The notes beneath the pieces are model-generated. The model did no database searches, was not told the DNA's origin, and saw nothing but the letters and a program-made list of their open reading frames with translations. From positions 1-64,000 of the forward strand of contig JAFGWE010000014.1 of assembly GCA_016937345.1 (NCBI GenBank): a stretch of 64,000 nucleotides of DNA, in the 5' to 3' direction. Below are positions 10,388 through 64,000 of the stretch, piece by piece. Origin of the DNA: Methanomicrobiaceae archaeon. Lineage in GTDB: Archaea; Halobacteriota; Methanomicrobia; Methanomicrobiales; Methanomicrobiaceae. Position 1 is the first letter of the stretch. Every line of letters starts with the position of its first letter. A program made the translations under genes and the position numbers.

Positions 10388-11875
10388 ATGAAACATGCAC
10401 TTCTATCGGTCTGGGATAAGACCGGCATCGTTGAACTTGCAGAGTGTCTCTCAAAAAACAACTATAAAATCCTGAGTTCCGGAGGCACTGCAAAGACTCT
10501 TCGTGAGGCAGGACTCAAGATTACCGAAGTATCAGAACATACAGGCGCACCCGAAATGATGGACGGACGCGTTAAAACTCTTCACCCGAAGATTCACGGC
10601 GGACTTCTGGGAAGAAGAGGTATTGACGATCAGGTAATGCGGGATAACAAAATCTCCGGAATAGACATACTTGTCGTAAACCTCTATCCGTTCGAGGAGA
10701 TGTCAGGCAAAAACCTGCCATTAAATGAACTCATAGAATTTGTCGATATAGGAGGGCCTGCAATGATTAGGGCGGCTGCCAAGAATTTCAAGGATGTTGC
10801 TGTCGTAATCGACCCGGCAGACTATGATATGCTTAAAAAATCAGTTGAAGAAGACAACATGACAGAAAAAGAAAGACTTTATCTTGCAAAAAAGGTCTTT
10901 GCACGCACTTCTTCATATGATGCAGCCATATCAAACTACCTCTTTGGTCTTGAATCGGAAACCCCCGAGATTTATACAGTACAGTTCAAAAACGGAAGGT
11001 CACTCCGCTATGGAGAGAATCCTCACCAGAAGGCAGCTGTTTATGGAGAGACAGGTATTGCAGGGCAGGTTCCGCTTCAGGGAAAGGCAATGTCCTATAA
11101 CAACTATCTGGATGTTGATGCGGCAGTAGGTCTTTTAAGGGAGTTTGATGAGACCGCAGCAGTTATTGTAAAGCACAACAACCCTTGCGGTGTATCACTT
11201 GGAGACAGCCTTCTTGAGGCATACACAAAGGCACGCGATGTTGATCCTGTCTCTGCGTACGGCGGAATTGTTGCACTCAACCGTGAGGTGGGAGCAGATG
11301 TTGCAAAAGAACTTGCATCAACATTTATTGAAGTGGTAATCGCCCCCTCATACACAGAAGAAGCGCTCTCTTTAATGAAGGTAAAAGAGAACATGCGTGT
11401 TCTGATTCTTCCAAAAGAAAATGAAACAGTATCTCTTCGCACAATAGACGGCGGAGCGCTTGTTCAGATTACTCCAAAAGACGTTACGGAAAACTGGGAG
11501 GTTGTATCTGAACGCGAACCGACAAAAGAGGAGATTGAAGGTATGAAACTTGCAATGAAGATCTGCAAACATACGAAAAGCAATGCAATAATTTTTGCAA
11601 AAGGAAAGTCAGCCCTTGCAATCGGCGCAGGCCAGATGAACAGGGTAAACTCAACCCAGATTGCAGTTATGAAGGCAAACTCCCCGCTTAAAGGATCTGT
11701 TGTTGCATCCGATGCCTTCCTTCCGTTTGCAGACACACTTGAGGTTGCAGCCCAAGCAGGTGCAACAGCACTTCTGCAGCCGGGCGGCTCTATCAGGGAT
11801 CAGGAAGTAATAGATGCTGCAAACAGGCTTAATGTCGCAATGGTCTTCACAGGTGTGAGATACTTCAGACATTAA
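10388..11875 (+). CDS. purH: Bifunctional AICAR formyltransferase / IMP cyclohydrolase
   Basis: Last two steps of de novo IMP synthesis. The N-terminal MGS-like cyclohydrolase domain (1-145) has SGGTAKTLREAG, TEVSEHTGAPEMMDGRVKTLHPKIHGG (in pieces around 45-72) and the INLYPF-like NLYPFEE. The transformylase domain (about 150-495) has SLRYGENPHQKAAVYG, the catalytic Lys-His in IVKHNNPCGV, and RTIDGGALVQ. It is full length for bacterial PurH (about 500). Many archaea use PurP and PurO instead, so a complete PurH suggests the bacterial-type route. It is a single gene on the plus strand. Confidence 0.97.
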   Translation: MKHALLSVWDKTGIVELAECLSKNNYKILSSGGTAKTLREAGLKITEVSEHTGAPEMMDGRVKTLHPKIHGGLLGRRGIDDQVMRDNKISGIDILVVNLYPFEEMSGKNLPLNELIEFVDIGGPAMIRAAAKNFKDVAVVIDPADYDMLKKSVEEDNMTEKERLYLAKKVFARTSSYDAAISNYLFGLESETPEIYTVQFKNGRSLRYGENPHQKAAVYGETGIAGQVPLQGKAMSYNNYLDVDAAVGLLREFDETAAVIVKHNNPCGVSLGDSLLEAYTKARDVDPVSAYGGIVALNREVGADVAKELASTFIEVVIAPSYTEEALSLMKVKENMRVLILPKENETVSLRTIDGGALVQITPKDVTENWEVVSEREPTKEEIEGMKLAMKICKHTKSNAIIFAKGKSALAIGAGQMNRVNSTQIAVMKANSPLKGSVVASDAFLPFADTLEVAAQAGATALLQPGGSIRDQEVIDAANRLNVAMVFTGVRYFRH

Positions 11876-59897: not shown

Positions 59898-60455
59898 TTA
59901 ATAAAGTTTGATTAATTCACGCTTTTTTAGTTCTAAAAAACATTTTGCACAGGTTGAAGCGTCTTCAAGTGCATTATGCGAATATTTAGGATATTTTCCA
60001 AATAAAAAATAGTACAGTTCCTGCAATTTCGGCCATTTATCTCCATAGGGCCCAGGTATTTTACAAAGATGTGCTGTGGATTTCATTGTACAAAAAGATT
60101 TTTTCCGAAGAAATGAAAAAAATAATCCAATATTTGAGACTTCATTCTCAATAATCCTTGAGTCATACTCAAAATTGTGTGATATAACTAAATCAGATAT
60201 TTGCAGGTCTTTACTGAATTCTAAAAAAACATGCTCAAAAGGATACCCTGCATCTTTTGCAGCCTGTGTTGTGATATTATGAATAGCAACAGATTCTTCA
60301 GGAATCTCAAATCCATCAGGAATTATAATATATTCTTTTTTTCTGCATTCTCCTAAATAAGTATCGTAAATTACCCATCCCATTTGGACAAGACGCGGAA
60401 TTTCTGAATTCTCAAAAATACCTGTTGTTTCGCAGTCAAAAAAAAGATATTTCAT
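59898..60455 (-). CDS. DnaQ-like DEDDh 3'-5' exonuclease
   Basis: RNase T/DnaQ-fold exonuclease. The first acidic pair is in FFDCETTG (about residues 5-12), the second motif in SHNFEYDSRIIENE (about 95-108) and the third in HNALEDASTCAK (about 163-174) with the general-base His, giving D-E-D-D-H. 185 residues from the ATG at 60455 (MKYLFFDCETTG). It is on the minus strand, downstream of the CRISPR array's distal end by 67 bp and in the direction of cas and array transcription. This suggests, but does not show, a link with spacer trimming. It could equally be an unrelated housekeeping exonuclease. Confidence 0.88.
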   Translation of the reverse strand: MKYLFFDCETTGIFENSEIPRLVQMGWVIYDTYLGECRKKEYIIIPDGFEIPEESVAIHNITTQAAKDAGYPFEHVFLEFSKDLQISDLVISHNFEYDSRIIENEVSNIGLFFSFLRKKSFCTMKSTAHLCKIPGPYGDKWPKLQELYYFLFGKYPKYSHNALEDASTCAKCFLELKKRELIKLY

Positions 60456-60522
60456 AGAGATAACATCCATAATGTTTTACTTTACTATCTCCCTAATCTT
60501 TTTTAGAGATTATTGCCAACAT

Positions 60523-60551
60523 AGTGTCAACCCTGTACACACAAGGAACTC
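60523..60551 (-). repeat. Degenerate terminal CRISPR repeat
   Basis: A 29-base copy in register with the array (61 bp before the next repeat) that differs at several positions from the consensus, mainly in the first eight bases on the plus strand and one base in the GGG stem. A mutated last repeat normally marks the oldest, leader-distal end, so the leader is at the other side near cas2. Confidence 0.8.
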
Positions 60552-61954
60552 TTCTCTTGCAATTTCGGCGCTTAATTCGGAAACGGTTCATCCCTGTACA
60601 CACAGGGAACTCCGACAGTGCATCAGTGCCGTATGAATTGTTGGCGGTTCATCCCTGTACACACAGGGAACTCCAATATTCAAACCAACAACAATAGACA
60701 GTTATCGGTTCATCCCTGTACACACAGGGAACTCAGATTTATAAATACAGATGGTTACACAATTGCCGGTTCATCCCTGTACACACAGGGAACTCTAGTA
60801 ATTGACCTTGAAGCTGGCCTTGGGGCTCGGTTCATCCCTGTACACACAGGGAACTCTACAACCATTTGAATAATTTGTTCTTCGGTTACGGTTCATCCCT
60901 GTACACACAGGGAACTCGCGAAACTTCAGCGCTGTGCTCGTGACGCTTTCGGTTCATCCCTGTACACACAGGGAACTCGTGATTCAAATATTGTTTTATT
61001 ACTGAGATTACGGTTCATCCCTGTACACACAGGGAACTCGGGTTCTTAATGTTGCATTATTCGGATTATTCCGGTTCATCCCTGTACACACAGGGAACTC
61101 TCAATGCCATGTTTTTACACCTTCCTTTCTGTCGGTTCATCCCTGTACACACAGGGAACTCTTCTCCCGGATTTCTTCAAGTTCTGCCGCTATCGGTTCA
61201 TCCCTGTACACACAGGGAACTCACAAAGAGCTACTCGCAGAACTCGCACGGAGGCGGTTCATCCCTGTACACACAGGGAACTCGCCTTTGATATTTGTGG
61301 AAGTCTTGGAATTTACGGTTCATCCCTGTACACACAGGGAACTCGCAATGAGGACAAACAAATATGTGAGCGCCTCCGGTTCATCCCTGTACACACAGGG
61401 AACTCCTTCTGAGCGTGAGATATCCACCTTTGTATCTCGGTTCATCCCTGTACACACAGGGAACTCACACTGACAAAACCGGTTTTAGAAGTTTCGGGCG
61501 GTTCATCCCTGTACACACAGGGAACTCGCTATCTGTAGAAAAGATAACGAATTATCAGTCGGTTCATCCCTGTACACACAGGGAACTCGTGGGGAGGAAA
61601 AAACCCTCTTCACAAAAACCCGGTTCATCCCTGTACACACAGGGAACTCTTTCAGTGAGTTGCGATTCTTTGGTTTCAATTCGGTTCATCCCTGTACACA
61701 CAGGGAACTCGTCACTCCTTCCCCCTGCAGTTCCCCGGTCATCGGTTCATCCCTGTACACACAGGGAACTCATACCTGTTGAAATTGGTAAATGTCGGGG
61801 GAACGGTTCATCCCTGTACACACAGGGAACTCGTGAAGGGCATCTTTGACTTTAAGTGCAAGTTCGGTTCATCCCTGTACACACAGGGAACTCATCATCC
61901 AAAAACGATCGGACACTATCAGATTCGGTTCATCCCTGTACACACAGGGAACTC
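60523..61954 (-). CRISPR. Type I-E CRISPR array, 24 repeats and 23 spacers
   Basis: Repeats of 29 bp (plus strand CGGTTCATCCCTGTACACACAGGGAACTC, here split as CGGTTCATCCCTG and TACACACAGGGAACTC) recur at exactly 61-bp steps from 60584 to 61926; 23 are identical as read and one terminal copy is degenerate. All spacers are therefore 32 bp and all look different. On the minus strand the repeat begins GAGTTCCC and ends GATGAACCG, matching the Escherichia coli type I-E style. CCCTGT and ACAGGG form a 6-bp stem with a GTGT loop, the Cas6e target. Transcription is expected leftwards, from the cas2 side. Confidence 0.98.
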
Positions 61955-61990
61955 TCATCTGCTTATATATTAGATAAAAATCCAATATAT
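61955..61990 (-). promoter_or_regulatory. Putative CRISPR leader (36 bp)
   Basis: Only 36 bp separate the cas2 stop from the first repeat. The minus strand reads an A/T-rich stretch with two TATA-like elements, ATATATTGG next to the cas2 stop (about 61980-61988) and TAATATATAA (61963-61972). The first would place a transcript start near the first repeat. Any further leader sequence must lie within the 3' part of cas2. Confidence 0.55.
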
Positions 61991-63182
<1,192 letters not shown>

Positions 63183-63190
63183 ATATCACC

Positions 63191-63886
63191 TCAGACTGAT
63201 CTTACAAGCATCAGACCGCAACCAAAACCTTTTGCAGGACCCACTCCTTTTCCAAGAGTTTCAATAAACTTTTCACTATCTTTCACCGTCAGAATTCCAG
63301 TAAAATCAATTGTGCTTAATGAAACCTTTCGGTTCTTTTTACCCTGCATAAAATTTACCTGATTATAGGCATCTGCTCTCACAAAACCATCCTCAATACT
63401 AAAACCAAGCCTTTCAGAACGGGACGATAGCCATCTGAAACCTTCCTGCTGAACAATCTCTGCAACCGGAGGGAGAGGCGATTTATCACCATATTCTTTA
63501 ATTATCCTCTGTTTCGCGTCCATCACAACATCATGCTTGTATCTTTTCTTCTCCTGTCCTTTTGTTGCAGGAATCGTTTTTGTAACAATAGGATTTGCAC
63601 GAAGCGAAAATCCAAGTTTTTTTCCCTCAGTAATAACAGGATTATAAGATTTTGTTTCTATATTCCAAAGACTGCCATTACAGTAGGGTTTTCTTTCAGA
63701 AACAATGAATATAACAGGTTTACTTTCTTTTAAATCAACCCTGTAAAGAAAATCTCTCTCCCGATATTCCGAATCAGAGAACATATCCCATAGCATTGAA
63801 TGAATCTGATAAGGTCCTGAAGCAATTTTTTGAAATTCAGGAGAAAATACAGAATGCATATTTACAGTAACCCTTGATAAAAACAT
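63191..63886 (-). CDS. cas6e: CRISPR RNA endonuclease Cas6e
   Basis: Cuts the precursor transcript at the base of each repeat hairpin and stays in the Cascade complex. The N-terminus MFLSRVTVN, then IHSMLWDMFSDSEYRERDFLYRVD, is characteristic of Cas6e/CasE, and the C-terminal glycine-rich loop GPAKGFGCGLMLVR closes the second RRM-like fold. 231 residues. Its ATG shares one base with the cas5e stop (TGATG), which fixes the start. Confidence 0.94.
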   Translation of the reverse strand: MFLSRVTVNMHSVFSPEFQKIASGPYQIHSMLWDMFSDSEYRERDFLYRVDLKESKPVIFIVSERKPYCNGSLWNIETKSYNPVITEGKKLGFSLRANPIVTKTIPATKGQEKKRYKHDVVMDAKQRIIKEYGDKSPLPPVAEIVQQEGFRWLSSRSERLGFSIEDGFVRADAYNQVNFMQGKKNRKVSLSTIDFTGILTVKDSEKFIETLGKGVGPAKGFGCGLMLVRSV

Positions 63887-64000
63887 CAGAAATTCCCCCC
63901 AATCAGATTAATCCAGCCAAAATATTCTTTCCTGTAAGAAAACTGCCACCTTTTCCTGCTGAGAATATTATCTCTCCTCATATGTTCTTCATCAGGTTTT
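63886..64000 (-). CDS. cas5e: Cas5e, C-terminal fragment cut by window edge
   Basis: The last 37 codons of a frame that stops at 63886-63888 and overlaps the cas6e start by one base. The residues MRRDNILSRKRWQFSYRKEY match the C-terminal pattern of type I-E Cas5 (RRD...S...W.F..R), and the position before cas6e is the canonical place. The rest, with cas7, cas11, cas8e and cas3 expected beyond, is outside the window. Confidence 0.75.
   Translation of the reverse strand, partial: KPDEEHMRRDNILSRKRWQFSYRKEYFGWINLIGGNF

What the first reader, a model, noticed from the sequence alone, without database searches (positions are those of the whole stretch)
59898..61990. DnaQ-like exonuclease placed at the end of a type I-E CRISPR locus
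A DEDDh exonuclease gene lies 67 bp beyond the leader-distal end of the array, on the same strand and in the direction of cas and array transcription. DnaQ-like exonucleases are known to trim prespacers in type I-E adaptation, and in some bacteria the DnaQ domain is fused to Cas2e. Here Cas2e is unfused, so a separate nuclease could fill that role. A cas-linked adaptation exonuclease placed behind the array would be unusual in archaea.
Basis: partly seen in the sequence, partly recalled or inferred. Interest (0 to 1): 0.7.

Follow-up and report, generated by a model that had tools for sequence, protein, structure and literature searches.

The report
CRISPR-linked exonuclease in methanogen archaea
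A small DNA-trimming enzyme gene next to a methanogen's CRISPR memory bank is no chance neighbour: it recurs at the edge of the same kind of CRISPR system across this order of archaea and is inherited and lost with it, so it probably helps cut new viral DNA memories to size.

Summary
Observation confirmed. ORF 59898-60470 (-) encodes an intact 190-aa DEDDh exonuclease beyond the leader-distal end of a 24-repeat type I-E array. The bystander reading was tested and fails. In 26 of 28 family fusA loci no copy adjoins fusA; the exceptions are the window genome and a congener with an 11-kb deletion that removed most of exo, the array and all cas genes together. Class-wide, 26 of 37 cas1e+ genomes carry the exo against 41 of 195 cas1e- genomes (p=1e-8). 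In 21 of the 29 decidable cas1e loci it touches the I-E locus, in two arrangements: at the leader-distal array end (12 there, plus array-edge contigs), or as first gene before cas3 (9). In seven loci of the Methanoculleus/Methanofollis clade its stop codon lies in or directly at the terminal repeat. Exo and Cas1 trees agree (Mantel 0.70), all linked copies keep DEDDH, and dN/dS is 0.16-0.26. Best explanation: a dedicated stand-alone 3'-5' trimmer of prespacers for Cas1e-Cas2e. Linkage is shown; the trimming role is inferred (about 0.6). Stand-alone DEDDh nucleases are a known CRISPR accessory class (PADLOC DEDDh, 92 bits). The archaeal family, its two placements and array-boundary anatomy were not described in the literature searched.

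The parts
59898..60470 (-). Stand-alone DEDDh 3'-5' exonuclease gene (190 aa; alternative start at 60455)
   Evidence: PF00929 E 1.5e-9; PADLOC DEDDh 92 bits, E 1.2e-26; D12 E14 D103 H165 D170 invariant in 15 linked copies and in all linked copies where covered; AF2 mean pLDDT 92.4, best PDB match the DnaQ domain of S. thermophilus DGCC 7710
60523..60551 (-). Degenerate leader-distal terminal repeat of the array, 52 bp from the exo start codon
60523..61954 (-). Type I-E CRISPR array, 24 repeats of 29 bp, 23 spacers of 32 bp, constant 61-bp period
61991..62296 (-). cas2e, unfused, 101 aa
   Evidence: TIGR01873 104.5 bits, cut-off 33.15
62298..63182 (-). cas1e
   Evidence: TIGR03638 363.6 bits, cut-off 215.6
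63191..63886 (-). cas6e
   Evidence: TIGR01907 147 bits, cut-off 45
63886..64000 (-). 3' end of cas5e; cas7, cse2, cse1, cas3 follow on the same contig beyond the window
   Evidence: ORFs and gene order in L004
57639..59834 (+). fusA (aEF-2), convergent neighbour, not part of the system
   Evidence: fusA has no exo neighbour in other family members except the deletion scar in G004

Best explanation
The gene is a dedicated, CRISPR-linked stand-alone DEDDh 3'-5' exonuclease of archaeal type I-E loci. Shown here: it is intact, its family is under purifying selection, and it is recurrently placed at the edge of type I-E loci in Methanomicrobiales (leader-distal array end, or first gene before cas3); it is co-inherited with Cas1e and was co-deleted with the locus in a congener. 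Inferred: it acts in trans on DNA held by the unfused Cas1e-Cas2e complex. Cas1-Cas2 would protect a core of the captured fragment while this exonuclease removes the 3' single-stranded extensions, the PAM end last, giving an integration-ready prespacer and hence a 32-bp spacer. This is the job done in cis by the Cas2-DEDDh fusion of the Megasphaera and Streptococcus thermophilus type I-E systems, and by Cas4 in systems that have it.
For: Linkage: contexts, in at least 24 Methanomicrobiales genomes. Co-occurrence: 26/37 cas1e+ against 41/195 cas1e- genomes, Fisher p=1.1e-8. Not a fusA neighbour; in G019 the exo+array+cas block lies at another site (87-nt identical contig ends join exo to array). 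Co-deletion scar in G004. Exo/Cas1 tree distances Spearman 0.70, p=2e-4. dN/dS 0.16-0.26 in nine pairs with usable dS. Catalytic residues kept in every linked copy where covered. Terminal array repeat in or directly at the exo stop codon in seven loci. Nearest solved fold is the DnaQ domain of S. thermophilus DGCC 7710 (E 1.4e-11); Cas2-DEDDh 8fy9 is found by profile at 2e-8. Precedent: PMC10284694 (Cas2/DEDDh trimmer-integrase; stand-alone DEDDh as ancillary components). Weak support: off-length spacer units are rarer in exo-linked loci (2.0%) than in loci without any exo (7.6%) or with the exo elsewhere (3.2%); linked against all others, locus permutation p=0.006.
Against: No biochemistry; DEDDh enzymes act on DNA or RNA in many pathways. 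At least eight cas1e+ genomes lack a linked exo (G051, G163, G082, G170, G085, G177, G201, G217), so it is not strictly required. Intact copies persist beside two- to four-repeat mini-arrays in genomes where no cas1e was found (G037, G057, G137; G079 is cut by its contig end). E. coli DnaQ/ExoT are not needed in vivo (PMC9699676). The nearest-fold margin is small and TREX, DinG and ExoI score nearly as well. The spacer-length signal rests on few independent lineages, and the base rate of 61-bp units is above 90% overall in every group.
Confidence: 0.6

Rival explanations
1. It is an interference accessory: it degrades the single strands that Cas3 leaves on a targeted invader, rather than trimming prespacers.
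For: In nine loci it is the first gene directly upstream of cas3, mostly 50-80 bp away (G010, G025, G071, G142, G173, G174, G183, G200; about 354 bp in G218), so it is probably made with Cas3.
Against: In at least 12 other loci it is at the opposite end of the module, beside the array, and in all but the window genome not co-oriented with cas3; known CRISPR DEDDh fusions are to Cas2, not Cas3 (PMC10284694).
Confidence: 0.15
2. It is a semi-independent passenger or defence gene that travels with I-E loci but does not act in CRISPR.
For: Intact copies persist beside mini-arrays without detected cas1e (G037, G057, G137). The family has many members not near CRISPR, including two in this genome close to a ThsB-like TIR gene.
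Against: Copies in other cas1e-less genomes are deleted, broken or truncated (G004, G024, G080, G083, G135). Exo and Cas1 phylogenies are concordant. Two unrelated placements both stay at the locus edge.
Confidence: 0.15
3. It trims RNA: 3' ends of pre-crRNA, or array transcripts near the terminal repeat.
For: DEDDh enzymes include RNases (RNase T); the gene is beside the array.
Against: In type I-E, Cas6e stays bound to the 3' hairpin and crRNA 3' trimming is not part of the canonical pathway (established knowledge); the closest solved folds are DNA exonuclease domains.
Confidence: 0.07
4. Bystander: a housekeeping gene of the fusA region into which the CRISPR locus happened to insert.
For: It is adjacent to fusA in the window.
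Against: Not next to fusA in 26 of 28 family genomes; the two exceptions are the window genome and the G004 deletion remnant. It follows the CRISPR locus to other sites.
Confidence: 0.02

Closest known systems
CRISPR ancillary stand-alone DEDDh nuclease (PADLOC-DB PDLC01247 'DEDDh'; described as ancillary components of every CRISPR type in PMC10284694, citing Makarova 2020)
   Same: HMM match 92 bits over nearly the whole model; not fused; linked to a CRISPR-Cas locus
   Different: Archaeal type I-E family with two fixed placements; terminal array repeat abuts the gene's stop codon in one clade
Cas2-DEDDh (DnaQ) fusion of type I-E: Megasphaera trimmer-integrase (PDB 8fy9) and S. thermophilus DGCC 7710 Cas2-DnaQ
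   Same: Same exonuclease superfamily and I-E adaptation setting; the S. thermophilus DGCC 7710 DnaQ domain is the top Foldseek match. That this crystal is the Cas2 domain is my own knowledge of the strain, not stated in the hit.
   Different: Separate polypeptide here; not closer to it by sequence than to PolC or Pol III epsilon
E. coli DnaQ and ExoT as host trimmers of Cas1-Cas2-bound DNA
   Same: 3'-5' DEDDh activity expected
   Different: Those are chromosomal housekeeping enzymes not linked to CRISPR and dispensable in vivo (PMC9699676)
Cas4
   Same: Presumed step: prespacer 3'-end/PAM processing
   Different: Unrelated fold; no cas4 in the I-E operon seen here

Membership tests
DEDDh 3'-5' exonuclease superfamily | Exo motifs with D, E, D, H, D | tested here: met
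   D12, E14, D103, H165, D170; invariant in the 15 linked sequences of A1
DEDDh 3'-5' exonuclease superfamily | RNase H-like exonuclease fold | tested here: met
   AF2 pLDDT 92.4, pTM 0.89; Foldseek to DnaQ/TREX/ExoI at about E 1e-8 or better
DEDDh 3'-5' exonuclease superfamily | 3'-5' exonuclease activity | not testable with these tools
   needs purified protein
CRISPR-associated stand-alone DEDDh (PADLOC DEDDh) | Match to the family model | tested here: met
   1.2e-26, 92.1 bits, model positions 1-138 of 139
CRISPR-associated stand-alone DEDDh (PADLOC DEDDh) | Conserved neighbourhood with cas genes or array | tested here: met
   21 of 29 decidable cas1e loci, 8 further loci undecidable from contig breaks; Fisher p=1e-8 for co-occurrence
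CRISPR-associated stand-alone DEDDh (PADLOC DEDDh) | Functional role in adaptation | not testable with these tools
   only indirect: spacer-length uniformity
Cas2-DEDDh fusion (trimmer-integrase) | Exonuclease fused to Cas2 | tested here: not met
   Cas2e is 101 aa and ends 36 bp before the array; exo is a separate gene
DNA polymerase III epsilon (DnaQ) | NCBIfam equivalog cut-off | tested here: not met
   best epsilon-subunit models give 32-41 bits against cut-offs of 186-245
Type I-E CRISPR-Cas (host locus) | cas3, cse1, cse2, cas7, cas5, cas6e, cas1e, cas2e and a 29-bp repeat with 32-bp spacers | tested here: met
   cas1e, cas2e, cas6e over cut-off; full operon order in L004 by ORFs and by homology to relatives' operons; period 61

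The most novel reading that the evidence does not exclude
The leader-distal position is itself functional. In one clade the oldest repeat of the array lies in or directly at the exo stop codon, so the exo gene is the founding edge of the array. Its convergent transcript would end in an antisense repeat hairpin, or run antisense into the oldest spacers, coupling exo expression to array transcription or to maintenance of the trailing end.
Probability: 0.1. Interest if true: 0.7.

Novelty: new member of a known kind. Interest (0 to 1): 0.52.

Why it matters
Which enzyme makes the 3' ends of prespacers in type I-E systems without Cas4 is unresolved in vivo: the E. coli candidates are dispensable (PMC9699676). 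Methanomicrobiales offer an order-wide set of I-E loci with and without a dedicated, linked, unfused exonuclease, including a named strain (Methanogenium marinum DSM 15558, L149). The trimming step could be tested there by gene deletion and reconstitution. The two placements and the deletion scar are also useful for the evolution of the fused trimmer-integrases.

Tried and rejected
Bystander of fusA: rejected. Pol III epsilon: rejected by NCBIfam cut-offs. Cas2-DEDDh fusion replacing the exo in exo-less loci: none seen; the Cas2 segment checked most closely (G051) has only about 37 bp before the array. Sequence search of PDB to place it among CRISPR nucleases: uninformative, PolC ranks first. 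Extension beyond the class: five homologues in one other family of the phylum, and others in archaea and bacteria, none near I-E genes or I-E arrays, so the I-E linkage was seen only in Methanomicrobiales. First repeat scan used a pattern one base short and was redone. Distances given count from the HMM end; true distances from the stop codon are. Makarova 2020 and Shmakov 2018 are not held, so I could not read what they list for archaeal I-E loci.

Full report
WHAT IS THERE. Window 59898-60470 (-) is a 190-codon ORF that matches PF00929 exonuclease at E 1.5e-9 and the PADLOC CRISPR-associated DEDDh model at 92 bits, E 1.2e-26. The catalytic set D12, E14, D103, H165, D170 is present. The array at 60523-61954 has 24 repeats at an exact 61-bp period, the leader-distal one degenerate. 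cas2e, cas1e and cas6e follow on the same strand and pass the NCBIfam type I-E cut-offs; cas5, cas7, cse2, cse1 and cas3 lie beyond the window end on the same contig. An AlphaFold2 model has mean pLDDT 92.4. Its best PDB match is the DnaQ domain of S. thermophilus DGCC 7710 (E 1.4e-11), but PolC, DinG, ExoI and TREX follow closely.

IS IT A BYSTANDER OF fusA? No. fusA was located in all 28 genomes of the family. An exo model run on the fusA loci hits only the window genome and G004. G004, a congener without cas1e, carries the last ~35 codons of the exo right after fusA, and then jumps directly into the 3' end of the CARF-HTH gene that lies beyond cas3 in the window genome. Alignment to the window contig puts the deletion at L004 3006-14353, about 11.3 kb. 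So most of the exo, the array and all cas genes were lost together. In G019, whose exo is 64% identical and Cas1 92%, the exo contig and the array contig share an identical 87-nt end, which puts the exo about 57 bp from the leader-distal repeat, at a site away from fusA and in the opposite orientation. The gene has flipped but kept its place at the array edge.

HOW REGULAR IS THE LINKAGE? Over 232 genomes of the class, cas1e is in 37 and the exo family (E<=1e-15) in 67; 26 of 37 cas1e+ genomes have it against 41 of 195 others (Fisher p=1.1e-8; the genomes are related, so this p-value overstates independence). Contexts show two arrangements. A: exo at the leader-distal end of the array, convergent with it, in G019, G020, G029, G044, G054, G064, G075, G084, G099, G100, G132, with array-edge contigs in G096, G120 and G136; the window genome is the codirectional version. 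B: exo as first gene immediately upstream of cas3, codirectional, in G010, G025, G071, G142, G173, G174, G183, G200, G218. Of the 37 cas1e loci, 21 have the exo at the locus edge, 8 do not (G051, G163, G082, G170, G085, G177, G201, G217; in G163 and G170 only about 320 bp beyond the array are visible), and 8 cannot be decided because contigs break there. G020 is a fragmented MAG with 4% contamination, so its Methanoculleus-like locus may be mis-binned.

ANATOMY OF THE ARRAY EDGE. In G020, G054, G064, G075, G079, G120 and G137 the terminal repeat begins at the exo stop codon, which in G054, G064 and G079 reads 'TGA|TCCCCAC..GTGGGGAA'; in G075 it is in exact 61-bp register with the rest of the array; in G044 a repeat-like palindrome lies inside the last codons. 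Since I-E arrays grow at the leader end, the distal repeat is the oldest, so in this clade the exo gene is the ancestral edge of the array. Intact exos in some genomes without detected cas1e stand beside two- to four-repeat mini-arrays (G037, G057, G137, and G079 at a contig end), while other exos in such genomes are broken, truncated or deleted (G004, G024, G080, G083, G135). The Methanoregula-type and Methanoplanus-type paralogues have no I-E repeat nearby.

CO-INHERITANCE AND SELECTION. Exo and Cas1 tree distances over 22 linked loci correlate (Spearman 0.70, permutation p=2e-4). The exo tree does not make the linked copies one clade (8 changes of label, at least 3 forced for the unlinked label), so the association was gained or lost several times. 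dN/dS is 0.16-0.26 in nine pairs (the window/G019 pair is saturated). All linked copies keep the catalytic residues where covered; one of the two paralogues in the window genome has lost three of them.

WHAT DOES IT DO? The most likely role is trimming of prespacer 3' ends on Cas1e-Cas2e. This rests on the fold and intact active site, the absence of a fused nuclease on Cas2e and of cas4 in the operon, the repeated linkage to I-E loci, and the precedent of the Cas2/DEDDh trimmer-integrase (PMC10284694). A weak quantitative hint is that repeat-spacer units that differ from 61 bp are rarer in exo-linked loci (32/1566) than in loci with no exo (13/172) or an exo elsewhere (8/250); locus-level permutation of linked against all others p=0.006, with few independent lineages. 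The arrangement beside cas3 keeps an interference role open. Persistence without detected cas1e in a few genomes keeps a CRISPR-independent role open. In E. coli the housekeeping DnaQ and ExoT trim in vitro but are dispensable in vivo (PMC9699676).

NOVELTY. Stand-alone DEDDh exonucleases are already described as ancillary components of all CRISPR types (PMC10284694, citing Makarova 2020) and have a PADLOC model, so this is a member of a known kind. What I did not find described in the literature searched is the Methanomicrobiales I-E family, its two placements, the array-edge overlap with the stop codon, and the co-deletion scar. Key classification papers were not readable here, so a prior mention in their supplements cannot be excluded. 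Genus names for the unnamed G genomes are inferred from the named records of the same contigs and from genome size; they are not given by the tool.

Noticed in passing
L084 9112-9430 (G004), against L004 3006-14353: Clean deletion scar joining the exo C-terminus to the end of a CARF-HTH gene: an 11.3-kb loss of a whole type I-E locus between congeners.
   Followed up: yes
L115, L117, L121, L120, L110, L214, L215 at the exo stop codon: The terminal CRISPR repeat begins in or directly at the exo stop codon; further degenerate repeats with changed but still pairing stems (e.g. CCCCGAAAGATCGGGG, CCCTGAATTATCAGGG) follow about 55 bp downstream.
   Followed up: partly
L005 8267-8851 and 9661-10263 (own genome, contig C21): Tandem diverged paralogues of the exo, one with lost catalytic residues (D12G, D103N, H165G), near a ThsB-like TIR gene (10552-11094).
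   Followed up: partly
C35 beyond the window (L004 13804-14589): HFX_2341/DUF6293 CARF-winged-helix gene divergent from cas3; also at the cas3 end in G019; similar CARF-HTH-like genes near cas3 in G051, G163 and G082. Possibly a regulator of the I-E locus.
   Followed up: partly
Nearly every Methanomicrobiales genome has a second, divergent Cas1 hit of about 115-157 bits (own: G000:C3:128322-129185), probably the known solo-Cas1 group.
   Followed up: no
window 61955-61990: Only 36 bp separate cas2e from the array here (about 26-50 bp in G019, G201, G051) against 130-200 bp in Methanoculleus; the array may be co-transcribed with cas genes, and in the window genome with the exo as well.
   Followed up: no
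L116 and L122 (G037, G057): Two-repeat mini-arrays downstream of an intact exo, in the orientation opposite to the usual one, in genomes without cas1e.
   Followed up: partly
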